Shown: one piece after another, positions 4,561-64,000 of the stretch | Numbering within the stretch: the stretch's first letter is position 1 | Layout: the number at the start of each line of letters is the position of its first letter | Assembly (NCBI RefSeq): GCF_000517265.1 | Contig: NZ_AYSJ01000004.1 | Span: forward strand, 366,819-430,818 | Reading direction: 5' to 3' | Source of the DNA: Photorhabdus khanii NC19 | Lineage (GTDB): Bacteria; Pseudomonadota; Gammaproteobacteria; Enterobacterales; Enterobacteriaceae | Length of the DNA: 64,000 nt | Translations under genes and position numbers: made by a program | The notes under the pieces: model-generated | Database searches by the model: none | What the model saw: only the letters and a program-made list of their open reading frames with translations | What the model was told of the DNA's origin: nothing

Positions 4561-5532
4561 CTATTTATCCCAACGCCACAAGGCGCTCATACCAGGGCGT
4601 AAACCTTCAACCGGCTGTAAGGGAAATAAACGAACTTCAAAGGTTCTCAGGTCAAAATCACCGGTCGCACGCGTCGCGCGTTTGGTTGCGTAATCTCCCA
4701 TCGGGGCGATATAACGTATTTCTGCTTCGATCTCTTTATCACCCAGCGCAGGAACACGAAGGTTGACTTTATCCCCTTTACGCACTTTCGCCAGAATGTC
4801 TTCCCGCAAGTTATAAATAAAATAGGCTTCCGGTACACGAACTAATGTCACCAGCGGGCTGTTGGCATTAAATAGTTCACCAACCTCTGCCGGAATCGGC
4901 CCAACTTCACCCTCGACTGGCGCTTTAACCTGTAAATCATCCTTCTGGGTTTGTAACTCAATGAGTTGCTGTTCAGCCTGACGCAGAGCCGCCGCATATT
5001 TCTGGCGTAGCTCAATCCTGTCACCATGCACACCTTCATCTAACGCAGCTTTTGCTCCCTGCATTTTTTGATAGGAAACATCCCTGCTCCTGCGGGCGTT
5101 ATCCAGTTCATTTCGTGAAACATAGCCTTTAGACGCGATGTTCTGAATACGGTTATATTCACGTACCGCATTATCATATTCAGCCTGAGCCTGTGCTAAA
5201 CCCGCTTCCAGATTCCGGATACTTTCTTCACGCGTACCATGCAGAGATTGTTCTAACTGGGCTTTAGCCTGATCACGGATAGCTTCCAATGAAGCGACTT
5301 GAGCCAGTAATTCAGGGCTTTCAAGTGTGATCAGGAGCTGACCTGTTTTAACATCATCTCCCCGTTCGACGTGGCGCGCGATCACCCGGCCTTTAGCCTT
5401 AGATGCCACAATCACTTCCGGCGCATCAACTTCACCCTGTAACAATAAATATTGGTTATGAGAACGAAATAACACAGCCATTGCTGTGAGCAGGATAACC
5501 AGTAAGATCGTAAAAAGTGTTGTTTTTTTCAT
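4561..5532 (-). CDS. HlyD-family membrane fusion protein of the exporter
   Basis: A periplasmic adaptor of 323 residues that links an inner-membrane pump to an outer-membrane channel. One N-terminal membrane anchor (about 5-24) is followed by a biotinyl-lipoyl-like half (GEVDAPEVIVASKAKGRV), a long Ala/Gln/Glu-rich alpha-helical hairpin (about 75-205), the second lipoyl half (VKAPVEGEVG) and a beta-barrel domain. Length and order fit the YhiI/YbhG type. It is the first gene of the operon and is divergent from btsS across 235 bases, which must hold its promoter. The outer-membrane partner is probably a TolC encoded elsewhere. Substrate unknown. Confidence 0.9.
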   Translation of the reverse strand: MKKTTLFTILLVILLTAMAVLFRSHNQYLLLQGEVDAPEVIVASKAKGRVIARHVERGDDVKTGQLLITLESPELLAQVASLEAIRDQAKAQLEQSLHGTREESIRNLEAGLAQAQAEYDNAVREYNRIQNIASKGYVSRNELDNARRSRDVSYQKMQGAKAALDEGVHGDRIELRQKYAAALRQAEQQLIELQTQKDDLQVKAPVEGEVGPIPAEVGELFNANSPLVTLVRVPEAYFIYNLREDILAKVRKGDKVNLRVPALGDKEIEAEIRYIAPMGDYATKRATRATGDFDLRTFEVRLFPLQPVEGLRPGMSALWRWDK

Positions 5533-5767
5533 TATGTCTTACACACTCAAAATTGCTCAACCTGAAACTAATAGCATCTTCGCATTATTTCACGGAAAAT
5601 TTCTTATATATTTGTACGTATAATCACTGACGGAAAGAATAAGTCTTTATAATAGTGTAGTGGTTTATGATTCTTGTCAAATATTGAACTACTTGAAATA
5701 AACTTTTGATAATCTTATTTAACTATTTCTGTAAACTAGCAACATTCGCCATCCTTCCGGAAAACCC

Positions 5768-7465
5768 ATGTACGAATTTAACCTTGTGTTGTTATTACTA
5801 CAGCAGATGTGCGTCTATTTGGTAATCGCTTGGCTGCTAAGTAAAACACCTCTGTTTATTCCACTGTTACAAGTTACAATACGTTTACCTCATAAATTGC
5901 TGTGCTACGTCATTTTCTCCATTTTCTGCATTATGGGGACTTATTTTGGTCTGCATATCGGTGATTCCATTGCCAATACCCGTGCTATTGGCGCTGTACT
6001 TGGCGGGCTTCTGGGCGGGCCAGGCGTCGGAGCTTTAGTTGGCTTAACAGGGGGGCTGCACCGCTATTTTCTAGGAGGGATGACTGCTTTCAGTTGTATG
6101 ATATCAACCATTGTTGAAGGTTTAATCGGTGGCATTATTCACCGCTATCTGATGAAACGGGGTCAAATAAACCGACTGATTAATCCCTGGACAGCCGCTA
6201 TCGTCACGTTTTGTGCTGAAATGATACAGATGGGCATTTTACTGCTACTTGCCCGCCCATACAGTGAAGTATTAGCGTTGGTAAAAAATATTGCCTCCCC
6301 GATGATTGTCACCAATAGTATTGGTTCAGCCATGTTCATGCGTATCTTACTTGACCGGCGTGCTATATTTGAAAAATACACCAGTGCATTTTCTGCTCAG
6401 GCACTGAAAATCGCTGTCTATACCGAAGGTATTTTGCGAAAAGGATTTAATGAAAATAACAGTATGCGGGTAGCAAAAGTTATTTATCAGCAACTGGAAA
6501 TTGGTGCCGTCGCCATTACAGACAGGGAAAAACTGCTGGCATTTATCGGTATCGGTTCAGATCATCACCTTCCTGGAACACCTATTTCCTCGGAGCACTC
6601 CCGCCGGGCAATTGAAAATAATGAAGTGGTTTATGCCGATGGCAATGAAATACCTTACCGTTGCTCAATCAATCCAACTTGCAAACTAGGCTCCACCCTG
6701 GTCATTCCACTACGGGGAGAAAATCAGCAAGTTATCGGAGCAATTAAACTTTACGAAGCCAAAAACCGTCTGTTTAGCTCAATCAATCGCACCCTGGGGG
6801 AAAGTATTGCCAGCCTGTTATCTGCCCAAATCCTTGCCGGACAATATGAACGTAACAAACAATCACTGCTCCAGTCAGAAATTAAGCTGCTTCACGCGCA
6901 AGTGAATCCTCACTTTTTATTTAATGCCTTAAATACCCTGCAAGCAGTGATACGGCGAGACAGTCATCAGGCTGGTCAGTTAGTACAATATCTCTCAACC
7001 TTCTTCCGTAAAAACTTGAAACGGTCAGAAGAGATCGTCACTCTGTCTGATGAAATAGAGCATGTGAATGCTTACTTACAAATTGAGAAGGCCCGTTTCC
7101 GTGATCACCTGCAAATAACTATTGAACTGCCGGAATCTCTGCTTCACGCCAAACTGCCTGCTTTTTCTCTCCAACCAATAGTAGAAAATGCGATCAAACA
7201 CGGCACATCACAATTACTGGAAACCGGTAGGATTACCATCCGAGCTCATCAACAGGATCGATTGCTGATACTGGAAGTGGAAGATAATGCGGGTCTTTAT
7301 AAGTCAGTTTCTATGGGAGATGGACTAGGAATGAGCCTGGTGGATAAACGGCTGCGACTTCGCTATGGTGAAAATTATGGTGTGCAAATAGATTGCCAGC
7401 CAGAACAATTTACCCGCGTAATTTTATGTTTACCATTAAATAAAGAGGCTGATAAAACTGTGTGA
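5768..7465 (+). CDS. btsS: Sensor histidine kinase BtsS (LytS type)
   Basis: The membrane kinase of the BtsS/BtsR pair, which in E. coli is a high-affinity sensor of extracellular pyruvate. The product has 565 residues (E. coli 561): a 5TM-LYT membrane module over about the first 200, a GAF domain at about 220-355, the His-kinase box [17 protein letters not shown] near 376 and an ATPase domain with N-box [11 protein letters not shown] near 469. The phospho-acceptor is the His of NPHFLFN. Its stop lies at the start of btsR, so the two are co-transcribed. The transporter it should control follows directly, which supports the pyruvate assignment over the paralogous YpdA system. Confidence 0.9.
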
Positions 7466-7467
7466 GC

Positions 7468-8184
7468 ATGAATATATTAATTGTTGATGACGAACCGCTG
7501 GCACGGGAAAACCTGCGTTGTTTGCTGGAAGAAGAACGGGATATCCAAATTATTGGCGAATGTGCCAACGCCGTTGAGGCTATTGGGGCCATACATCGCC
7601 TGAAACCGGATGTTGTATTTTTGGATATCCAGATGCCACGTATCACCGGATTAGAAATGGTAGGTATGCTCGATCCAGAGCACCGCCCCTATATCGTTTT
7701 CCTGACCGCATTTGATGAATATGCAATACAAGCGTTTGAAGAAAGCGCATTTGATTATTTATTAAAACCACTGGAAAAAAACCGTCTGACCAAAACCTTA
7801 CAACGATTACGACAAGGGCATCAGAAACAGGATATTTCCATTCTGACAGCAGAAGAGCCGCTGAAATATATCCCATGCACAGGCCACAGCCGGATCTGGC
7901 TGGTTCAACAGGATGAGGTGCTTTATGTCACCTCCCGCCCAAGCGGAGTCTATGTTATGTGTACCAATGGGCAGGAAGGATTTACTGAACTGACTCTTCG
8001 CACACTGGAAACCCGTACACCACTGATGAGAAATCATCGTCAATATTTGGTCAATATGACCCATCTGCGCGAAATCCTGTTTGGTGATAATGGACAAGCC
8101 GAATTGGTTTTACGTAATGGTCAAACTATTCCTGTCAGCCGCCGCTATCTGAAACCGCTGAAAGAGGCATTAGGGCTGAAATAA
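7468..8184 (+). CDS. btsR: LytTR response regulator BtsR
   Basis: The DNA-binding partner of BtsS. It has a receiver domain (about 1-120) with acidic pocket VDDEP at 6-10, phospho-acceptor Asp53 in FLDIQMP and the conserved Lys in LLKPLE. A LytTR domain (about 135-238) follows, which contacts DNA with beta strands. The sequence is almost collinear with E. coli BtsR ([20 protein letters not shown] is shared), so the assignment is firm. The start is either GTG 7462 (overlapping the btsS stop) or ATG 7468; I prefer the ATG because [10 protein letters not shown] is the usual beginning. Its expected operator is the set of direct repeats at 8231-8279. Confidence 0.93.
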
Positions 8185-8204
8185 TGCGTGATATTCATCA
8201 CATC

Positions 8205-8247
8205 TTCAGCAGGTTAGTAAATTTCGACTCACCGCTTACCTGCTGAA
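8205..8247. repeat. 10-bp inverted repeat upstream of the carrier gene
   Basis: TTCAGCAGGT at 8205-8214 is repeated exactly in inverted form as ACCTGCTGAA at 8238-8247, with 23 bases between. The right arm overlaps the last base of the first BtsR repeat and its spacer. No T-run follows, so it is not a clear terminator. It may be a second protein site or an RNA hairpin after btsR. Confidence 0.5.
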
Positions 8248-8279
8248 TCTAACCACTTAACCCGCCATACAACCACTCA
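8231..8279 (+). promoter_or_regulatory. Three direct repeats matching the BtsR operator
   Basis: ACCGCTTA at 8231-8238, ACCACTTA at 8252-8259 and ACCACTCA at 8272-8279 all fit the described BtsR half-site ACC(G/A)CT(C/T)A. The first two are separated by exactly 13 bases, as in the E. coli btsT promoter. The third follows after 12. The 20-21 base period places all three on the same DNA face. The repeats end 76 bases before the ATG of the carrier, where an activator site would sit. Confidence 0.82.
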
Positions 8280-8355
8280 CTCAGACACTTCCTGATAGCT
8301 TCCTTTAGCTGTGACAAGATAGGAGTAAAAAATTATAGCCCTCAGGAGAAGAGAA

Positions 8356-10158
8356 ATGCAGCACGCTCTCACATTTGTTATTGCGACGTTGTGTATTCTG
8401 GTTATCTGCTACCGTTTTTACGGCGTATTCTTCGTTAAGAAAGTATTGAAAGCTGATGACAGTGAAGTGACACCTTCGCATTTACTGGAAGACGGTAAAG
8501 ATTATGTACCTACGAAAAAATGGGTGAATTTCGGTAGCCACTTCGCGGCAATCGCAGCCGCAGGACCGCTGGTTGGCCCAGTATTAGCCGCTCAATACGG
8601 TTATCTGCCCAGTATGTTATGGCTGTTAATCGGCTGTGTTATCGGCGGTGCTGTACACGATACAGTTGTTTTATTCGCCTCAATGAAACATCGTGGTAAA
8701 TCGCTGTCAGAAGTTGCCAAAGCAGAACTTGGCCCAGTTGCAGGCTGGTGTACCGGCCTTGCAATGTTGTTCATCATCACGATTACCATGGCAGGTCTGT
8801 CTATGGTGGTGGTTCACGCATTAGAACGTAACCCCTGGGGAACGTTTGCAGTATTTATGACCATCCCGGTAGCCATCGGTGTCGGCCTGTGGGAACGCTT
8901 TACCGGCAATATGCGCGGAGCAACCTGGGTAGGCATTATCACCATTATGGCCTGTGTGCTCATCGGCCCTTATATCCAGGAATCGGCTTTCGGCGAATGG
9001 CTGAGTCTGCGTACATCCACCGTCAGCATGGCACTGCCAATCTACGCGTTTTTCGCAACCGCCCTGCCAGTTTGGATGCTGCTGACTCCACGTGGCTATC
9101 TCTCCAGCTTTATGAAAATTGGTGTATTCGGTGCGCTGGTTGTGGGTGTGATCTTTATTAACCCAGAGATCCAATTCCCGGCAGTGACTGAATTTATTCA
9201 TGGTAATGGCCCGGTGCTGGCTGGACCGGTATGGCCGTTTATCTCTATCACTATCGCTTGTGGTGCAATTTCTGGCTTCCACGCATTTATCGGTTCTGGT
9301 ACGACACCTAAACAGATCGATAAGTGGAGTGATATTTTGCCCGTTGGCTTCGGCGCAATGTTGGCAGAATGCGTTGTTGGCGTAATGGCGCTGATTGCAG
9401 CCACTTCCCTATATCCGGCTGACTATTTCGCTATTAACTCCGCCCCGGAAGTCTTCGCCACACTGGGTATGGATGTTGTCCACCTGCCAACACTCAGTCA
9501 GGAAATTGGCCTGGATCTGTATGGCCGTACTGGTGGTGCAGTCACCCTGGCAGTGGGTATGGCGGATATCTTCACCCGTATCCCCTGGTTCAGCCAATTG
9601 GCATCCTATTTCTTCCAGTTCGTCGTCATGTTCGAAGCGGTGTTTATCCTGACAGCAGTTGATTCTGGTACACGTGTTGCCCGCTACCTGCTGCAAGATT
9701 TTCTGGGCGATATCTGGGCGCCTCTGAAACGCCTCGACTGGTTACCGGGTTCGGTCGGTTGTAGTGTCATTGCCTGTTTATTGTGGGGTTATCTGTTGAA
9801 TTCCGGTGATATCAATTCAGTTTGGGCACTATTCGGTGTATCCAATCAACTGATGGCATCTATCGGCCTGATGATTGGTGCAACAATTATCCTGCGTTTG
9901 TCTGAAAAACGCTGGTATATGCTGACCTGCCTGATCCCACTGGCTTACCTGTATGTTACGGTGAACTACGCTGCCTATTGGATGGTGAAAAATGTCTATT
10001 TCAACTCCGCAGCAAAAGGTTTCAACATCTTCAACGGAACTATCTCCATTGTGATGGTTATCCTCGGTGTAGTGATTATGGTTTCTTCTATTATGCAATG
10101 GCTGAAACTATGGCGCGCACGCAGTGCAAACAATCCGGTTGAAGTATTGAGTAACTGA
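8356..10158 (+). CDS. CstA-family carrier, probable pyruvate/H+ symporter controlled by BtsR
   Basis: An inner-membrane carrier of the CstA family with about 16-18 hydrophobic helices over 600 residues. Family marks include the N-terminal FYGVFF segment, FGSHFAAIAAAGPLVGPVLA (about 60-80), the GGAVHDTVVLF stretch and FHAFIGSGTTPKQI (about 310-325). E. coli CstA and BtsT are about 700 residues, and this is the shorter form common outside the Enterobacteriaceae. It follows btsSR behind a BtsR operator and ends at a clear terminator, so it most likely does the job of BtsT, taking up pyruvate. Peptide uptake, the older proposal for CstA, cannot be excluded. The ribosome binding site is CAGGAGAAG, close to the ATG. 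Confidence 0.85.
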   Translation: MQHALTFVIATLCILVICYRFYGVFFVKKVLKADDSEVTPSHLLEDGKDYVPTKKWVNFGSHFAAIAAAGPLVGPVLAAQYGYLPSMLWLLIGCVIGGAVHDTVVLFASMKHRGKSLSEVAKAELGPVAGWCTGLAMLFIITITMAGLSMVVVHALERNPWGTFAVFMTIPVAIGVGLWERFTGNMRGATWVGIITIMACVLIGPYIQESAFGEWLSLRTSTVSMALPIYAFFATALPVWMLLTPRGYLSSFMKIGVFGALVVGVIFINPEIQFPAVTEFIHGNGPVLAGPVWPFISITIACGAISGFHAFIGSGTTPKQIDKWSDILPVGFGAMLAECVVGVMALIAATSLYPADYFAINSAPEVFATLGMDVVHLPTLSQEIGLDLYGRTGGAVTLAVGMADIFTRIPWFSQLASYFFQFVVMFEAVFILTAVDSGTRVARYLLQDFLGDIWAPLKRLDWLPGSVGCSVIACLLWGYLLNSGDINSVWALFGVSNQLMASIGLMIGATIILRLSEKRWYMLTCLIPLAYLYVTVNYAAYWMVKNVYFNSAAKGFNIFNGTISIVMVILGVVIMVSSIMQWLKLWRARSANNPVEVLSN

Positions 10159-54583: not shown

Positions 54584-55105
54584 ATGTCTGACTACATTGT
54601 TGTTTCCGCTGAGCTGACGCTTGAATCGTTTTACGGCGCGCATCACGGCTGGCTGAAAAACTGGCTCACGCGCAAACTGCAATCGTCCTTTGACGCCGAC
54701 GACGTAGCGCAGGATACCTTCCTCCGCGTGATAACTAATGACTCGCTACAGACAATTCGCGACCCAAAATCCTTCCTCTGCACTATCGCCAAAAGGGTGA
54801 TGATCGATCTGTTTCGCCGCAACGCTCTGGAAAAAGCCTATCTGGAACTGCTTGCGCAACAGCCTGAGGAGCTTATACCCTCGCCAGAAATTCGCCAGTG
54901 TCAACTTGAAACGCTCCAACAAATCGACCAGATGATCGATGGCCTGAGCAGCAAAATGCGCCAAACCTTTTTACTGTCTCAGCTTGAAAGTCTGACCTAC
55001 AGCGACATCGCTTCACGTCTTAATGTGTCTGTCAGTTCCGTGAAAAAATATATGGCCAAAGCCACCGAGCATTGCTTACTGTTTCGCCTGGAGCATGGAT
55101 TCTGA
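54584..55105 (+). CDS. fecI: Iron-starvation ECF sigma factor FecI
   Basis: An RNA polymerase sigma factor that transcribes fecA when ferric dicitrate is bound outside. 173 residues: region 2 ([35 protein letters not shown] at about 37-80) and region 4 ([24 protein letters not shown] at about 137-160). It is very close to E. coli FecI. fecR follows with one base between. Base composition is richer in G+C than the flanking ytfJ and fklB genes. Confidence 0.96.
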
Positions 55106-55106
55106 T

Positions 55107-56057
55107 ATGAATACCATGTTGACCAATTCTCGTCTCCAGGCCCTAAAATCAGCATCACACTGGTATGCAGTACTGAGCAGCGATCAAACAAGCCCACGGC
55201 AAACCGAAAAATGGCAGCGTTGGTACGAGCAGCATCAGGATAATCAGTGGGCGTGGCAACAGGTGGAAAATCTGCGTAACCAAATGTTTATGGTGCCAGA
55301 CAATGTGGCAAGCCGCACACTGCAGGAAGCGCACCTGTCACGCCGCAGAATGATGAAAAGCATGCTGTTGCTACTAGGGGTTGGCGGTATCTGGCAACTG
55401 TGGTACTCAGAAGCGGGAGAAGGTCTGCGAGCCGATTACCGTACTGCTAAAGGGGATATTCAGCATCATCGACTGAACGATGGCACACTGCTTACACTCA
55501 ATACTGACAGCGCAGTAGATGTCCGTTTTGACTCTCAGCAACGTCTGGTGCATCTCTGGTATGGCGAAATTGCCATCACCACCGGGCACGATGTGGGAAC
55601 AAGGTTATTGCGCGTACAAACCCGCCAGGCACAACTGACCGCGCTGGGTACCCAATTTACAGTTCGTCAGGAAGGCAACACCACGCTAGTTAGCGTGCAG
55701 CAGCATGCCGTAGAGGTGATGCTGACCGGTGCTGACCGCAAATATATTGTACGTCAGGGTGAAAGCTTAAAATTCAGCGCCACCGACTTTAGCGAACTGA
55801 CAACGGCAATCGCCGAAGACAACGCGTGGACGCAGGGTATATTAAGCTTCAGCGACAAACCACTGAGTGAAGTGATAGCGACCCTCGCCCGTTATCGCAA
55901 CGGCGTATTACGCTGCGACCCAACTGTCGCCTCACTACGGTTAAGCGGCACTTTCCCGATAAAAAATACCGATACAGCATTAACCGTCATAGAAAAAACA
56001 CTTCCCGTTAAGATTCAATACATTACCCGTTACTGGGTGAATGTTCTGCCCGCATAA
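55107..56057 (+). CDS. fecR: FecR, transmembrane regulator of FecI
   Basis: Carries the ferric-citrate signal from FecA to FecI. 316 residues: a cytoplasmic N-terminal part with the W-rich [18 protein letters not shown] (about 41-58), one membrane helix (about 84-100, [14 protein letters not shown]), and a periplasmic FecR domain with [14 protein letters not shown] and [18 protein letters not shown] near the end. ATG 55107 gives the E. coli length; an in-frame codon at 55095 overlaps fecI. Confidence 0.95.
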
Positions 56058-56156
56058 AAATCATTAACGTAAAAATAATCATTTTCGATTATCCCTTTTT
56101 ACCTCTTCATTCGACTTATAAGTGAATACAGCAACAAAATGATTATGGAGACATGT

Positions 56157-58517
56157 ATGATGCCTTTACGTGCACGGCCACTGCGCGCGCTTCACAAAAC
56201 AACACCGCTGGTAATAGCGATTCGTTTGAGCCTGTTACCGGTGGCTTGCCTAACCTCGGGGATCGCGTATGCTTCGGTGGCGCCAGCTAGCGCACACTAT
56301 GACATTAATGCAGGCGAACTGGATAAAGTTCTCAATCAATATTCCACCCGCGCGGGTATTACCCTTTCAGTAAATGCCAACTTAACGCGCGGCAAACAGA
56401 GTAGCGGCCTACACGGCGATTATTCCATCACCGATGGACTGAACATCTTACTGGCCGGTACTGATTTACAGGCGAAAACGTTGGGTGATAACACGTTCAC
56501 GCTCGAACCCGCTTCTGTCACGCAGAAAGACTCGATGACCGTGATAGGCGACTGGCTAGGCGATGCTCGTGAAACTGACGTGTTTGAACATGCAGGCGCA
56601 CGCGATGTCATCCGCCGTGAAGATTTTGCCAAAACAGGCGCAACAACAATGCGTGAAGTGCTAAACCGCATTCCTGGCGTCAACGCACCGGAAAACAACG
56701 GTACCGGCAGCCACGACCTGGCGATGAACTTCGGCATTCGTGGCCTGAACCCGCGTCTTGCCAGCCGCTCTACGGTTCTGATGGATGGCGTTCCGGTACC
56801 CTTCGCGCCTTACGGCCAGCCACAGCTATCGTTGGCACCAGTATCTCTCGGCAACATGGACGCCGTAGACGTAGTACGCGGTGGCGGTGCTGTGCGTTAC
56901 GGACCACAAAGCGTAGGTGGTGTGGTGAATTTCGTGACTCGTGCTATCCCGCAGGATTTTGGTATTGATGCAAGTGTGGAAGGCCAGCTTAGCCCCACAT
57001 CTTCACAAAACAATCCAAAAGAAACCCATAATCTGATGATTGGAGGTACGGCAGATAACGGTTTCGGCACGGCGCTTCTCTACTCCGGTACACGTGGCAG
57101 CGACTGGCGCGAGCACAGCGCCACGCACATTGACGACGTGATGCTCAAAAACCGCTATGTACCCAATGAAGCGCACACCTTCAACAGCCTGCTGCAATAT
57201 TATGATGGCAATGCGGATATGCCAGGAGGTCTTTCACGCGCCGATTACGATGCCAATCGCTGGCAATCCACTCGCCCATATGATCGCTTCTGGGGCCGCC
57301 GTCAGCTCGCAAGCCTCAGCTATCAGTATCAACCCGACCAGCAGCACAAATTCAATATTCAGAGCTTATATACCCATACCTTGCGCAGCGGTTATCTCGA
57401 GCAGGGCAAACGCATTACCCTTTCCCCACGGGAATACTGGGTGCGCAGCATCGAACCGCGCTATAGCCAGCTCTTCAATTTAGGGCCTTCAGCCCATGAA
57501 GTAGGAATTGGCTACCGCTACGTGAATGAATCCAGTCACGAAATGCGTTACTACACCGCCACCCGCAGCGGCGAATTACCCAGCACGTCGAGTCCTTATG
57601 ACCGTAATACCCGCTCTGGCACCGAGGCTCATGCCTGGTACATTGACGACCGCATTGATATCGGCAACTGGACCATCACGCCAGGGATACGATTCGAACA
57701 TATCAAATCCATCCAAAACAACAACCTGAAAGGCACCCGCCAAGAAGTGAGCTACAATGCGCCGCTGCCTGCACTCAACGTTCTTTATCACGTTACTGAC
57801 AGCTGGAATCTTTATGCCAATACGGAAAGCTCATTCGGTACCGTACAGTACAGCCAGATTGGTAAGGCGGTGCGGAGCGGCAATGTAGAACCGGAAAAAG
57901 CGCGAACCTGGGAAGTCGGAACCCGCTACGACGATGGCGCTCTGACGGCGGAAATGGGGCTGTTCCTGATTAACTTCAACAATCAATACGACTCCAACCA
58001 GACCAACGATACTGTTACAGCACGTGGGAAAACCCGACACACTGGGCTGGAAACTCAGGCACGTTACAATCTTTCCGAGCTTACGCCTAAACTGGAGAAC
58101 GTTTCGGTTTACGCCAACTACACGTATGTGAACGCAGAAATTCGTGAAAAAGGCGATACCTACGGGAATCAAGTGCCGTTCTCACCAAAGCATAAAGGTA
58201 CACTTGGTATGGATTACAAACCTGGCAACTGGACCTTCAACCTCAACAGCGAATTCCAGTCTGGTCAGTTTGCTGATAACGTTAACACCGTACAGGAAAG
58301 TGTCGATGGCAGCACCGGCCGCATACCGGGCTTTATGCTGTGGGATGCGCGCATGGCGTATGACTTCGGCCCACAAATGGCCAATCTGACTCTAGCCTTT
58401 GGGGTGAAAAACATTTTCGACCACGAGTATTACACCCGTTCCTATGATGATAACAATAAAGGCATCTACGCCGGGCAGCCGCGCATATTCTATATGCAAG
58501 GCTCACTGAAGTTCTGA
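56157..58517 (+). CDS. fecA: Ferric dicitrate outer-membrane transporter FecA
   Basis: A TonB-dependent receptor that imports ferric dicitrate and starts the FecRI signal. 786 residues from ATG 56157 (GGAG upstream): signal peptide, an N-terminal signalling domain ([19 protein letters not shown]), TonB box DSMTVIG, plug domain ([19 protein letters not shown]) and a 22-strand barrel ending in MQGSLKF. Identity to E. coli FecA is high along the whole protein, much higher than vertical descent would suggest for an accessory gene, and the composition is GC-rich. The cognate periplasmic and ABC genes are missing here. Confidence 0.97.
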
Positions 58518-60467: not shown

Positions 60468-61178
60468 ATGAATACGTCATTTAATGAGATTTTATCAGAA
60501 ATTCAGAAATCCAAGACCATGCCGGAATTAGAAAAGAAATTGTTAAACGCGATAAATTATCTGGGTTTTGAATTTTACTCAATTTATCAGGAAGAAAAAT
60601 ACCCATTCACGACAAAAAAATATGTTTTAATAACCAATTTAAATATAGAAACCGCAAACAATTATAATCAAAATAGTAATCACGACAGCGACCAATTAAT
60701 GAACGGTGATTATACTTTTTCCATACCTTCCATTTGCAATGAAAAAATATCAAAAAATGCTGATTTTATGATTAAAAAATCAAATATAGACGAAGTTAAA
60801 AATAGTCTCTCAATTAAAATAAAAGGCTCTCATGGAGAAAGATCAATTTTTTCAGTCGCCAGAAAAGAAGGCGCCATTTCTCACAATGAGATACTTAATA
60901 AAGCAGGCATGTTAGGCATATTAGCAAATGAATGCGTGGAAACATTCAATAACTTAAAGAATAAAGAGGATAAAATAATCGTCCCAACACTGTCCACAAG
61001 AGAAGTCGAAGTAATAAGATGGACTTGTGAAGGAAAAACCTCTGCTGAAATAGCCAATATACTGGAAATTTCAACAAGAACAGTTAATTTCCATATCAAT
61101 AATATTATGGAGAAATTAGTTGTTCCCAATAAAGTCGCTGCGGTTGCTAAAGCAATAGCATACAACCTGATCATATAG
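60468..61178 (+). CDS. LuxR-type regulator without a cognate synthase (LuxR solo)
   Basis: 236 residues: an N-terminal autoinducer-binding-like domain (about 10-165) and a C-terminal LuxR helix-turn-helix (LSTREVEVIRWTCEGKTSAEIANIL, then STRTVNFHINNIMEKL, about 175-222). By hand alignment to TraR, Tyr61, Asp70 and the HG glycine are kept, but Trp57 reads Thr, Pro71 reads Gln and Trp85 is lost. The pocket therefore probably does not bind an acyl-homoserine lactone. Photorhabdus solos such as PluR and PauR sense other ligands in this way. No luxI lies in the window. The gene is convergent with the ligase operon, a likely target. Very AT-rich. Confidence 0.88.
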   Translation: MNTSFNEILSEIQKSKTMPELEKKLLNAINYLGFEFYSIYQEEKYPFTTKKYVLITNLNIETANNYNQNSNHDSDQLMNGDYTFSIPSICNEKISKNADFMIKKSNIDEVKNSLSIKIKGSHGERSIFSVARKEGAISHNEILNKAGMLGILANECVETFNNLKNKEDKIIVPTLSTREVEVIRWTCEGKTSAEIANILEISTRTVNFHINNIMEKLVVPNKVAAVAKAIAYNLII

Positions 61179-61180
61179 CA

Positions 61181-61205
61181 ATTAGAGCCAAAATGAGGCT
61201 CTAAT
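61181..61205. terminator. Hairpin between the LuxR solo and the ATP-grasp gene
   Basis: ATTAGAGCC and GGCTCTAAT form a 9-bp stem around seven bases between two convergent genes. No strong T-run, but the position fits a shared terminator. Confidence 0.6.
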
Positions 61206-61214
61206 CATATGAAA

Positions 61215-62510
61215 TTATAAAATATAATTTTTCAAAATATCTCTCCAGGCATCATTAATTTCATTCATCAGGGATTCACATTTGATATGCTCGTCATTAA
61301 TATGCACACAAACATAACCACAGAAATCATTATTGCTCTTTGGTGTTTCGTAAACCAACGAATTTTTGTCTAAATTAATCCCTATTGAAATAATATCATA
61401 ATGTAATTTCATCAAGATATTATCAATAGATACTAACAATAATCTATTTACTACTGTTTTACTAAATTTATCATCAATTTTTCCGTCTTTACCCGCCAGT
61501 AAATTAATCAAAAATGCTCTACCCTTCGCTTTGGGTAATATCATTCGATCACTAAATCCTTTAACCAAGTGATCAACCCAAATCTCCTGCAAACTTATAC
61601 CATATACCCGATTAGCCATATCCCAAATACGCATACCTGCCGGTCTACGGTTAGTTTCAACCAGGAAGGTTTCTCCCGTTTTACTATCTTGCTTAATCTC
61701 ATTATGGAATGCACCGAGAGTCTGCCCTGAAATCAGGTTAATTGCTTGCCCTGCTTTATGTAATGCAATAGCATTTCTTCCATCACATTGCGCGGGAACT
61801 ATTTGCCCTATTTCAACAGGATATTCACCTTTCTGAGAGACTTTTTGCGTTAAAAAAGCCATACAACCAATACCATCGTACGAATATTCTGTATCGAAAA
61901 TAATCAATTCTTCTGCAAGAATTGGGTTGCCACCAGACTGCGCAACAGATTGAGCAAAAGCCGTTGGGATTTTATTCCTATCTTTAATCGCCACTACACC
62001 GAAATTTGCCCGGCCACAATTAGGTTTAATAACCACACCATACGGAACAGAATCATAAAATGCTTCCAGTTCTTTAATATCATTAATGAAACTGTATCGC
62101 GGAGTTTTAATATGTTGGGCTGCAAGCAGTGGCGATATACGGGTTTCTTGTTGACGAAACTGAGATTTCTCAATACCCGCGAAACTTAATTCAGGATCAT
62201 CACCATAAACATTCAGTTTCTTCGCTATAACAGCAGCATACCCGGACACCGCATCCATAAAGGGAAGAATACCGGCACATGCCATATCAAGTTCAGAAAG
62301 AACACCTATTACTTTATCAACATAATTTTCTATCCGCACAGGTATATGATAGACAAATGGGGTAATATCTTTCTCTTCACCGGACAACATATCACTAATA
62401 ATCACTAATTCAAGGGAATAATTATACTGAATATAGTCACGGATATTAACGATTTCATTCAGTCTTGCCGGAAGATAATCAAGTACTAACAAGTATTTTT
62501 TCGAACTCAT
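61215..62510 (-). CDS. ATP-grasp ligase of a specialised-metabolite cluster
   Basis: 431 residues. An N-terminal pre-ATP-grasp domain (about 1-110) is followed by the ATP-grasp fold: YGVVIKPNCGRANFGVVAI (about 155-173, with the ATP-binding Lys), ILAEELIIFDTEYSYDG and the Mg-binding FLVETNRRPAGMRIW (about 285-299). The family forms an amide or similar bond between a carboxylate, activated as acyl phosphate, and an amine. It resembles L-amino-acid ligases and carboxylate-amine ligases more than purine or D-Ala enzymes. The C-terminal 130 residues are typical only of this subgroup. It lies 13 bases after the MFS gene, in one operon. Substrate unknown. Confidence 0.85.
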   Translation of the reverse strand: MSSKKYLLVLDYLPARLNEIVNIRDYIQYNYSLELVIISDMLSGEEKDITPFVYHIPVRIENYVDKVIGVLSELDMACAGILPFMDAVSGYAAVIAKKLNVYGDDPELSFAGIEKSQFRQQETRISPLLAAQHIKTPRYSFINDIKELEAFYDSVPYGVVIKPNCGRANFGVVAIKDRNKIPTAFAQSVAQSGGNPILAEELIIFDTEYSYDGIGCMAFLTQKVSQKGEYPVEIGQIVPAQCDGRNAIALHKAGQAINLISGQTLGAFHNEIKQDSKTGETFLVETNRRPAGMRIWDMANRVYGISLQEIWVDHLVKGFSDRMILPKAKGRAFLINLLAGKDGKIDDKFSKTVVNRLLLVSIDNILMKLHYDIISIGINLDKNSLVYETPKSNNDFCGYVCVHINDEHIKCESLMNEINDAWRDILKNYIL

Positions 62511-62523
62511 ATTTCCTCCATTA

Positions 62524-63708
62524 TTAACTATTATGCAAATTGAATTTAAGCGAACGATAAGGATTAATAATGACGAACATCAATAAAACAAATACAGAGA
62601 ATATCAAATAGATACTATTGTAGGAAAAATAGTTCAGTAAATTAGCACAAATGAAACTGGTTAAAGGTGTCGCTACTTGATTCAAAACAAGCACAACACC
62701 GAGATACTGAGAAAAATTCTTCTTCGGAATAAGGCTTGCCCGGTAAGAGCGGGAAAAAAGATTAAAACAACCTTCCGAACCAATGACCAGCAAGAAACCC
62801 AATGTATAAATAACGAATAACGGACCGGTAGCGAATAATGTCAGACCACATAACGCAATAAGAAAAGCCGTCACACCAACGATACGCACATCAAAAATAC
62901 GGCATAATTTCGGAGCAACAAAAAATACACAACAGTTCACCACCCCTGCATAAGCCAAAAGCCGGGCATAACTCTCTTCCGGCTGCGAAAAAATACTGGT
63001 GATAACATAAACAGCCGTTGATAAGATAGCCCCTTGCATCACATTCATCAGAAATGTCAGGCTAATAACCCGTAGCAGCAACGGGTTTCCCATCAGGAAT
63101 TTAAATATCGCAGGCAGATTATAACCTTCTCTATTAGCATGCTCTGCAATCTGATTTTTCCGTTGTAGCTGAAACCATATGAAGCTGCTAATCAGGAAAG
63201 GAAAAAAAGCAAATGCAAATACGGCGTAAACGCTGAATTTATAAACCAGTACACCAACCACCGCCGGTGCTGCAATATAAGTAAACTGTTCAACAAATTG
63301 CAAACGAGAGTTAACAGAAGGTAACTCTATTGCATTAATGTTTTTAGAGACAAAACCTTCGAGGTTGACATAACCCGCTCCACTAAAAAAGGATAAAACA
63401 CATGAGAGAGGAATAATGATATATACAATATTATTATCAGAATATATAAATGAAAGAATAAAAAGGAATAAACAAACCAATGAACGTAGAATATCACTCA
63501 GGAATAACATAACTAGTGTATGCATCCTGTCACCCATCCAGCCAGAAATAGGAAGTGATATGACTCTGAATAACCGTTCAAGCCCAAAAGCAAAAGATGA
63601 AAGTGAAGCGCTATTAGTTGAGGTATACACTAATACAGGCACAGCAAACATCACGAATGCTTCTGAAAAAACAGAGAAAAAGCGAGCCAGTATGATCCTG
63701 TGTATCAT
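62524..63708 (-). CDS. Major facilitator superfamily transporter of the cluster
   Basis: An integral membrane protein of 394 residues with about 12 helices. GWMGDRMHTLVMLFLSDILRS (about 56-76), in two parts, is the loop 2-3 motif typical of MFS drug efflux proteins. The family is that of small exporters in natural-product clusters. GAGG lies nine bases before ATG 63708. It is between the carbamoyltransferase and the ATP-grasp ligase and is therefore the likely exporter of the pathway product. Uptake of a precursor is the alternative. Confidence 0.88.
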   Translation of the reverse strand: MIHRIILARFFSVFSEAFVMFAVPVLVYTSTNSASLSSFAFGLERLFRVISLPISGWMGDRMHTLVMLFLSDILRSLVCLFLFILSFIYSDNNIVYIIIPLSCVLSFFSGAGYVNLEGFVSKNINAIELPSVNSRLQFVEQFTYIAAPAVVGVLVYKFSVYAVFAFAFFPFLISSFIWFQLQRKNQIAEHANREGYNLPAIFKFLMGNPLLLRVISLTFLMNVMQGAILSTAVYVITSIFSQPEESYARLLAYAGVVNCCVFFVAPKLCRIFDVRIVGVTAFLIALCGLTLFATGPLFVIYTLGFLLVIGSEGCFNLFSRSYRASLIPKKNFSQYLGVVLVLNQVATPLTSFICANLLNYFSYNSIYLIFSVFVLLMFVIINPYRSLKFNLHNS

Positions 63709-63831
63709 TAGTATTACCTCAACCTTATTGTCTATCCCATTAGGCTATTTTATTTATCAATTCGAGTCTGGGCAATACTCAAATTACTTAATCAATTACG
63801 CCTACTGGGATAGACTTTTACTACGCAAATT

Positions 63832-64000
63832 TTAATGAATCGATTTAATCAAATAATTCCCCAAAACTAAATAATCAATATTTGTTTTCATGAAAGTTTT
63901 AATAGCATCATCAGGTGAACAAACAATCGGTTCACTATCGTTATAAGAGGTATTTAGCAACAAAGGAACACCTGTTTTCCGATAAAATTCCTCAATCAAC
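63832..64000 (-). CDS. Carbamoyltransferase, C-terminal end (continues beyond the window)
   Basis: The last 56 codons of a leftward gene. EEFYRKTGVPLLLNTSYN, then EPIVCSPDDAIKTFMKT and DYLVLGNYLI are the C-terminal signature of NodU/TobZ/NovN-type carbamoyltransferases (TG.P.LLNTS.N..EPIV..P.DA...F). These enzymes carbamoylate a hydroxyl group of a sugar or other natural product from carbamoyl phosphate and ATP. The catalytic Kae1-like part lies outside the window. 123 bases separate it from the MFS gene, which probably belongs to the same operon. Confidence 0.88.
   Translation of the reverse strand, partial: LIEEFYRKTGVPLLLNTSYNDSEPIVCSPDDAIKTFMKTNIDYLVLGNYLIKSIH

What the first reader, a model, noticed from the sequence alone, without database searches (positions are those of the whole stretch)
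60468..64000. LuxR solo + ATP-grasp ligase + MFS exporter + carbamoyltransferase: candidate undescribed metabolite pathway
Seen: a leftward operon of carbamoyltransferase (cut), MFS transporter and ATP-grasp ligase faces a LuxR solo. The region is very AT-rich and lies past the conserved cysQ-fklB pair. Known: carbamoyltransferases of the NovN/TobZ type decorate natural products, ATP-grasp ligases make amide bonds, MFS proteins export. Inference: a small ligase-based (non-NRPS) pathway makes and exports a carbamoylated amide, under control of a non-AHL signal. I cannot link it to a known product.
Basis: partly seen in the sequence, partly recalled or inferred. Interest (0 to 1): 0.7.

Follow-up and report, generated by a model that had tools for sequence, protein, structure and literature searches.

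The report
Photorhabdus clumping-factor operon with its regulator
The genes at the window's end are the already published quorum-sensing regulator and clumping-factor operon of the insect pathogen Photorhabdus; what the operon makes chemically still seems unknown, and a related copy sits in two plant-associated Pectobacterium species.

Summary
The window lies in a Photorhabdus genome; extended past 64000 it gives a LuxR regulator (pluR) and the six-gene pcfABCDEF operon ("Photorhabdus clumping factor"), published as controlled by non-AHL signals (photopyrones via PluR, dialkylresorcinols via PauR). The window's LuxR carries the photopyrone-type motif TYDQCS. All seven genes occur in 12 of 12 congeneric genomes held. 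I found no structure for the operon's product in the open-access papers searched. Added here: (1) PcfB, an argininosuccinate-synthase homologue, lacks the ATP-binding SGGLDTS loop in 12 of 12 species and in both Pectobacterium copies, yet is under purifying selection; (2) the cluster, plus an L-amino-acid ligase and a LysE exporter, occurs in 2 of 25 Pectobacterium species; (3) the photopyrone synthase PpyS was found in 5 of 12 genomes, not in the window's own. Most likely PluR switches on synthesis and export of a small arginine/serine-derived, carbamoylated, ligase-joined compound; the regulation is published, the chemistry is inference. Novelty: already known; the interest lies in the unsolved product and the loop-less PcfB.

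The parts
60468..61178 (+). pluR: LuxR-type receptor-activator of the pcf operon; residues T62 Y66 D75 Q76 C90 S113/S115 = published photopyrone-type motif TYDQCS
   Evidence: ORF; Pfam GerE and Autoind_bind; motif against published positions
61215..62510 (-). pcfF: ATP-grasp, L-amino-acid-ligase-like
   Evidence: present in 12 of 12 Photorhabdus genomes
62524..63708 (-). pcfE: MFS exporter
63832..64000 (-). pcfD: O-/N-carbamoyltransferase of the NodU/GdmN/TobZ family, 3' part only; the gene runs on to 65529 in window numbering (L003:4651-6348)
   Evidence: Beyond the window, in L003 (window number = L003 + 59181): pcfC 6372-7175, pcfB 7175-8362, pcfA 8352-9380, candidate PluR box 9628-9645

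Best explanation
This is the pluR-pcfABCDEF locus of a Photorhabdus species (identity: about 0.97). PluR, a LuxR-type receptor of the photopyrone-binding type, activates the operon from a promoter in front of pcfA (published for P. luminescens; here a conserved palindrome ACTGTCA-N4-TGACAGT is the candidate site, inferred). The six proteins most likely make and export one small amino-acid-derived compound (inferred, about 0.7): PcfA (PLP, SbnA/CysK-type) forms a beta-substituted alanine from activated serine; PcfC (DDAH-type hydrolase with its Cys-His-Glu triad) splits a substituted guanidine such as an N-substituted arginine; PcfB (argininosuccinate-synthase fold without the ATP loop) handles a citrulline- or arginine-like ligand without making an acyl-adenylate; PcfD adds a carbamoyl group; PcfF joins the product to a second amino acid; PcfE exports it (order and substrates: inferred, below 0.3). 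Cell clumping and insect toxicity are the published downstream effects.
For: Gene content, order and site. Genus named Photorhabdus by 11 of 12 loci. Published locus: PluR = Plu4562; PauR = Pau4062 and pcfABCDEF = pau4068-pau4063 (passages). Published motif TYDQCS for PluR and TYDQYI for PauR: the window has TYDQCS, and the P. asymbiotica and P. australis rows have TYDQYI, which is an internal control on the assignment. Palindrome exact in 10 of 12 upstream regions, one base different in the other 2. Purifying selection on every gene, dN/dS 0.025-0.137 in four pairwise comparisons. Pectobacterium copies carry an added L-amino-acid ligase (LAL_C2, 3.2e-15) and a LysE exporter, as expected if the product is an amino-acid derivative.
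Against: No product was detected or predicted by any search; all substrates are inferred from fold families. A 2025 paper says clumping is thought to be mediated mainly by phage tail fibres, and its acrA mutant had lower pcfAB and pcfD transcripts but little change in clumping (passages), so the metabolite may not be the clumping agent. The window's own genome has no PpyS match, so its PluR may not sense a self-made photopyrone. Structure models of PcfF and PcfB were too poor to use (mean pLDDT 62.4 and 40.4). The palindrome is not shown to be the PluR site; the published site is described without letters in the passages seen.
Confidence: 0.85

Rival explanations
1. The operon modifies the cell surface: the carbamoyltransferase (NodU-like) and ligase decorate an envelope glycan or peptide, and clumping follows directly; no diffusible product.
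For: Clumping is the published phenotype (passages); PcfD's best NCBIfam match is NodU, a decorator of a sugar-based signal.
Against: PcfE is an MFS exporter, the other enzymes are of small-amino-acid type, and the Pectobacterium copies add a LysE-type amino-acid exporter.
Confidence: 0.15
2. The operon is mainly an arginine/citrulline-handling pathway that changes nitrogen or polyamine metabolism, and clumping is an indirect effect.
For: PcfC and PcfB both belong to arginine-citrulline enzyme families.
Against: PcfB has lost the ATP loop; a carbamoyltransferase, a ligase and an exporter in one quorum-controlled operon are not expected of catabolism; the genome has its own ArgG.
Confidence: 0.1
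3. PcfB makes a nitrile, like the argininosuccinate-synthase-like nitrile synthetases, and the product is a nitrile-bearing dipeptide.
For: A solved nitrile synthetase is among the relatives (9lei, 4e-26).
Against: True argininosuccinate synthases are far closer (3.5e-67); ATP-dependent nitrile formation needs adenylation (passages, for an asparagine-synthetase-like enzyme), and PcfB lacks the ATP loop.
Confidence: 0.05
4. A hitherto undescribed biosynthetic cluster unrelated to any published locus.
For: The chemistry has no published product in the papers searched.
Against: Gene content, genus, order and receptor motif match the published pluR-pcf locus.
Confidence: 0.02

Closest known systems
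pluR/pauR-pcfABCDEF of Photorhabdus luminescens/laumondii, P. temperata and P. asymbiotica
   Same: Genus, seven genes, adjacency of the LuxR gene, receptor motif.
   Different: A species in which no PpyS was found; otherwise the same locus.
PCF-like cluster of Pectobacterium betavasculorum NCPPB 2795 (L043) and one more unnamed Pectobacterium species (L047)
   Same: All six pcf genes in the same order with a convergent LuxR gene; PcfA-F 57-74% identical.
   Different: Another genomic site, an added L-amino-acid ligase and LysE exporter, LuxR only 36-37% identical and without the PluR motif. I saw no report of it; the one genome paper searched mentions neither clumping nor carbamoyl (passages).
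Argininosuccinate synthase (ArgG)
   Same: Fold family: TIGR00032 291 bits, above its cut-off of 268; GNDQVR and downstream blocks kept.
   Different: SGGLDTS replaced by YNRRYNP or YNRLYNP and the GATGKGND loop two residues shorter.
Arginine dihydrolase AgrE/ArgZ and dimethylargininase DDAH
   Same: Best solved relative AgrE (Alr4995), 1.1e-44, catalytic Cys, His and Glu aligned; NCBIfam DDAH 219 bits, dihydrolase 207 bits.
   Different: Below both curated cut-offs (300, 450 bits); Asp where AgrE has Asn71 and Ala where AgrE has the Asp after His (numbering counted by me, role of Asn71 recalled).
SbnA (2,3-diaminopropionate route of staphyloferrin B) and CysK/CBS
   Same: PLP fold, SbnA model 289 bits, cysta_beta 304 bits.
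   Different: Below both cut-offs (350, 510 bits); no SbnB partner in the cluster.
Carbamoyltransferases GdmN, NovN, TobZ
   Same: 6.5e-88 to GdmN with HHxxHA and EFGPRALG blocks kept.
   Different: Acceptor unknown.
L-amino-acid ligases BL00235 and BacD
   Same: Only solved relatives of PcfF together with PurT-type proteins.
   Different: Remote (5.5e-5 and 0.007); lacks a LAL_C2 hit in Pfam.

Membership tests
pluR-pcfABCDEF locus | Photorhabdus genome | tested here: met
   11 of 12 loci with a PcfF relative are named Photorhabdus; the window's genome falls in the same genus as 11 of them by the genome search.
pluR-pcfABCDEF locus | Six-gene operon next to a LuxR gene | tested here: met
pluR-pcfABCDEF locus | Letter-level identity with plu4562-plu4568 | not tested
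PluR-type receptor | TYDQCS at the six positions, not WYDPWG | tested here: met
   published positions.
PluR-type receptor | Responds to photopyrone D and activates PpcfA | not testable with these tools
   Needs a reporter assay.
PpyS/PluR system | ppyS in the same genome | tested here: not met
   No match at 1e-15 in the own genome (17 contigs, 100% complete by estimate); 5 of 12 genomes match, one of the five with a TAA inside. Query identity checked by six published residues.
Functional argininosuccinate synthase (PcfB) | ATP-binding SGGLDTS loop | tested here: not met
   Absent in 12 of 12 Photorhabdus and 2 of 2 Pectobacterium copies; present in the genome's own ArgG.
Functional argininosuccinate synthase (PcfB) | Curated family score | tested here: inconclusive
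   Above TIGR00032's cut-off (291 vs 268), just below PRK00509's (323 vs 334).
Arginine dihydrolase / DDAH (PcfC) | Cys-His-Glu triad | tested here: met
   Alignment.
Arginine dihydrolase / DDAH (PcfC) | Curated family score | tested here: not met
   219 vs 300 (DDAH) and 207 vs 450 (dihydrolase).
SbnA (PcfA) | Curated family score | tested here: not met
   289 vs 350 bits.
L-amino-acid ligase (PcfF) | ATP-grasp fold | tested here: inconclusive
   Sequence hits weak; structure model too poor; fold search not run.

The most novel reading that the evidence does not exclude
PcfA and PcfC form an arginine-fed counterpart of the SbnA/SbnB route: PcfA joins the alanyl unit of activated serine to the guanidino nitrogen of arginine, PcfC, a DDAH-type hydrolase opened for a bulky guanidino substituent, releases L-2,3-diaminopropionate plus citrulline, and PcfB, an ATP-independent descendant of argininosuccinate synthase, binds or recycles the citrulline side. 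PcfD carbamoylates and PcfF ligates the product to give an exported small effector, shared by insect-pathogenic Photorhabdus and some Pectobacterium.
Probability: 0.1. Interest if true: 0.75.

Novelty: already known. Interest (0 to 1): 0.4.

Why it matters
The locus is the output of one of the first described non-AHL LuxR quorum-sensing systems, yet I found no structure for what it makes. The anatomy points to a small arginine/serine-derived compound and to a testable enzyme oddity (an argininosuccinate synthase without its ATP loop). The Pectobacterium copies offer a second, independent producer for comparison, and the receptor without a detectable synthase in the window's genome raises the question of which signal it answers.

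Tried and rejected
Considered and dropped: an undescribed cluster (the locus is published); membership of known clusters found on plasmids with an ATP-grasp relative (Streptomyces cyaneofuscatus and Burkholderia stagnalis, 28-29% identity): their neighbours are ferredoxins and other ATP-grasps, with no pcf-like enzymes in the annotation shown. Plasmid searches with PcfB, PcfC and PcfA gave only relatives below 60% identity (80, 25 and 621 records). Nitrile-synthetase reading of PcfB: demoted. A wider PluR regulon: the palindrome occurs exactly twice in the genome (pcfA and 38 bp before an NRPS start), and 40 sites have up to 2 mismatches against 23 for a reversed control; the two NRPS copies are homologous DNA, so they count as one case; left as a lead. 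A first comparison of PcfB with the genome's ArgG took the neighbouring argH by mistake and was redone. Structure prediction of PcfF and PcfB ran but gave poor models. Papers on the AgrE/ArgZ residues are not held. Searching for the Pectobacterium antibiotic literature gave no link to this cluster.

Sampling limits: the family, class and order searches (2 of 198, 1 of 369, 1 of 394 genomes) are draws from larger groups and did not turn up Pectobacterium; the scan of 84,980 species genomes used two short peptide patterns, so it finds close relatives only and did not list the second Pectobacterium genome.
Full report
What is there. The window is G000:C4:366819-430818, and its end was extended with L003 (G000:C4:426000-445999; window number = L003 + 59181, checked). 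Beyond 64000 the leftward operon goes on: carbamoyltransferase 4651-6348, a 267-aa DDAH/arginine-dihydrolase-like protein 6372-7175, a 395-aa argininosuccinate-synthase-like protein 7175-8362, and an SbnA/CysK-like PLP enzyme up to 9380 (families). The last gene's long reading frame starts at 9560, but the upstream part is broken in at least two related species and the conserved protein starts at its Met61, so I take 9380 as the start. Then come rplI, priB and rpsF (my reading of the sequences). The luxR gene is convergent with the operon, so the operon's promoter lies at its far end.

What it is. A scan of species genomes with the ATP-grasp found 12 loci, 11 in named Photorhabdus species and one in Pectobacterium betavasculorum. 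Papers seen as passages describe exactly this layout: PluR (Plu4562), PauR (Pau4062) and the adjacent pcfABCDEF operon, pau4068-pau4063 in P. asymbiotica; PluR senses photopyrones, PauR dialkylresorcinols; both switch on pcfABCDEF, which leads to cell clumping and adds to insect virulence (PMC4414361; PMC4235431; PMC4683029); HexA represses it (PMC5407808). The founding papers (Brachmann 2013, Brameyer 2015) were not read. The window's LuxR has T62, Y66, D75, Q76, C90 and S113/S115, the published TYDQCS motif. Across the 12 genomes the motif is TYDQCS in 8, TYDQYS in 1 (P. tasmaniensis), NYDQCS in 1 (P. namnaonensis) and TYDQYI in 2 (P. asymbiotica, P. australis); the last two agree with the published PauR motif.

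Conservation. All seven genes were found in 12 of 12 genomes of the genus held (own plus 11). fklB flanks the cluster in 12 of 12; rplI was seen in 11 of 12 (not within the stretch fetched for L026; in L030 and L032 it is further off). Cluster GC is 36.6% against 48.7% for fklB and 47.1% for the right flank. dN/dS is 0.025-0.137 for the seven genes in four pairwise comparisons.

The odd enzyme. PcfB aligns with argininosuccinate synthases over nearly its whole length, but where these have the ATP-binding SGGLDTS, PcfB has YNRRYNP or YNRLYNP, in 12 of 12 Photorhabdus proteins and in both Pectobacterium proteins; a second loop (GATGKGND) is two residues shorter. The genome's own ArgG keeps both. 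The blocks that I recall as lining the citrulline pocket (GNDQVR, the Ser/Glu block, the Glu and Tyr further on) are kept. PcfB's dN/dS of 0.128-0.131 in four of four comparisons speaks against decay. Its role without ATP activation is unknown; I infer binding or ATP-free processing of a citrulline- or arginine-like ligand.

The other enzymes. PcfC keeps the Cys, His and Glu of AgrE but has Asp at AgrE's Asn71 and Ala in place of the Asp that follows the His by two (numbering counted by me). A paper seen as passages says that this second Asp holds the guanidino group in arginine deiminases and is a lysine in DDAHs, making room for a substituent (PMC11659421). I infer that PcfC takes a substituted guanidine. 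PcfA falls between SbnA, cysteine synthase and cystathionine beta-synthase and reaches none of their cut-offs. PcfD keeps the conserved blocks of GdmN. PcfF is a remote relative of L-amino-acid ligases. No model of a structure was usable.

Pectobacterium. In P. betavasculorum (L043) and a second, unnamed species of the genus (L047) all six pcf genes lie in the same order with a convergent luxR: PcfA-F identity 57-74%, LuxR 36-37%. Two more genes sit beside pcfA in both: an ATP-grasp with the LAL_C2 domain of L-amino-acid ligases and a LysE-type exporter (Pfam run on L043 only). This is 2 of 25 genomes of that genus. The LuxR lacks the PluR motif, so the signal should differ. Low GC against the flanks (38.5% vs 52.6%, and 39.0% vs 53.3% and 59.2%) and the different site suggest horizontal transfer.

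Signal. PpyS was taken from G203 and recognised by six published residues, E105, R121, C129, D137, H281 and N310, all present with the 353-aa start. It was found in 5 of 12 genomes (one with a TAA inside) and not in the window's own. Of the 8 genomes with TYDQCS, 4 have a PpyS match and 4 do not; some of the latter are draft genomes. In G203 ppyS lies about 291 kb from pluR, whereas a review calls it adjacent (PMC10134790, passages). In front of pcfA a palindrome ACTGTCA-N4-TGACAGT is exact in 10 of 12 genomes and differs by one base in 2; it is a candidate PluR site, not a shown one. I did not find it in the two Pectobacterium loci.

Against my reading. No call shows a product. A 2025 study reports little change in clumping when part of the operon is down-regulated and names phage tail fibres as the likely bridges (PMC12502680, passages). 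Family scores for PcfA, PcfC and PcfF are below curated cut-offs. Statements that no product structure is in print rest on searches in an open-access library and on passages only.

Verdict. Known operon, correctly spotted, wrongly called undescribed. What remains of interest is the unsolved chemistry, the loop-less PcfB, the Pectobacterium copies and the receptor without a detected synthase.

Noticed in passing
G000:C17:140570-140587 (L093, L051:1501-1518) and G000:C2:1008514-1008531 (L052, L092): The pcfA-type palindrome occurs exactly 38 bp before the start of an NRPS gene, and with one mismatch before a homologous, frame-broken NRPS copy. Possible link of the NRPS to PluR, or chance.
   Followed up: partly
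G000 genome as a whole: Photopyrone-type PluR but no PpyS match; a 382-aa ketosynthase (L049), perhaps of the DarB/StlD kind (my guess), is present and might supply another signal.
   Followed up: partly
G206:C24:66614-67660 (L088): The PpyS copy of P. tasmaniensis has a TAA inside, and the same genome's PluR has the altered motif TYDQYS: receptor and synthase may be changing together.
   Followed up: no
window 55095-58517: FecR and FecA are both well above their curated cut-offs, but cysQ follows FecA directly, so fecBCDE are not next to it here.
   Followed up: no
L047:16816-19987: In the second Pectobacterium genome the PCF-like cassette lies between mutS and what reads like an iron-siderophore ABC transporter (names by me).
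   Followed up: no
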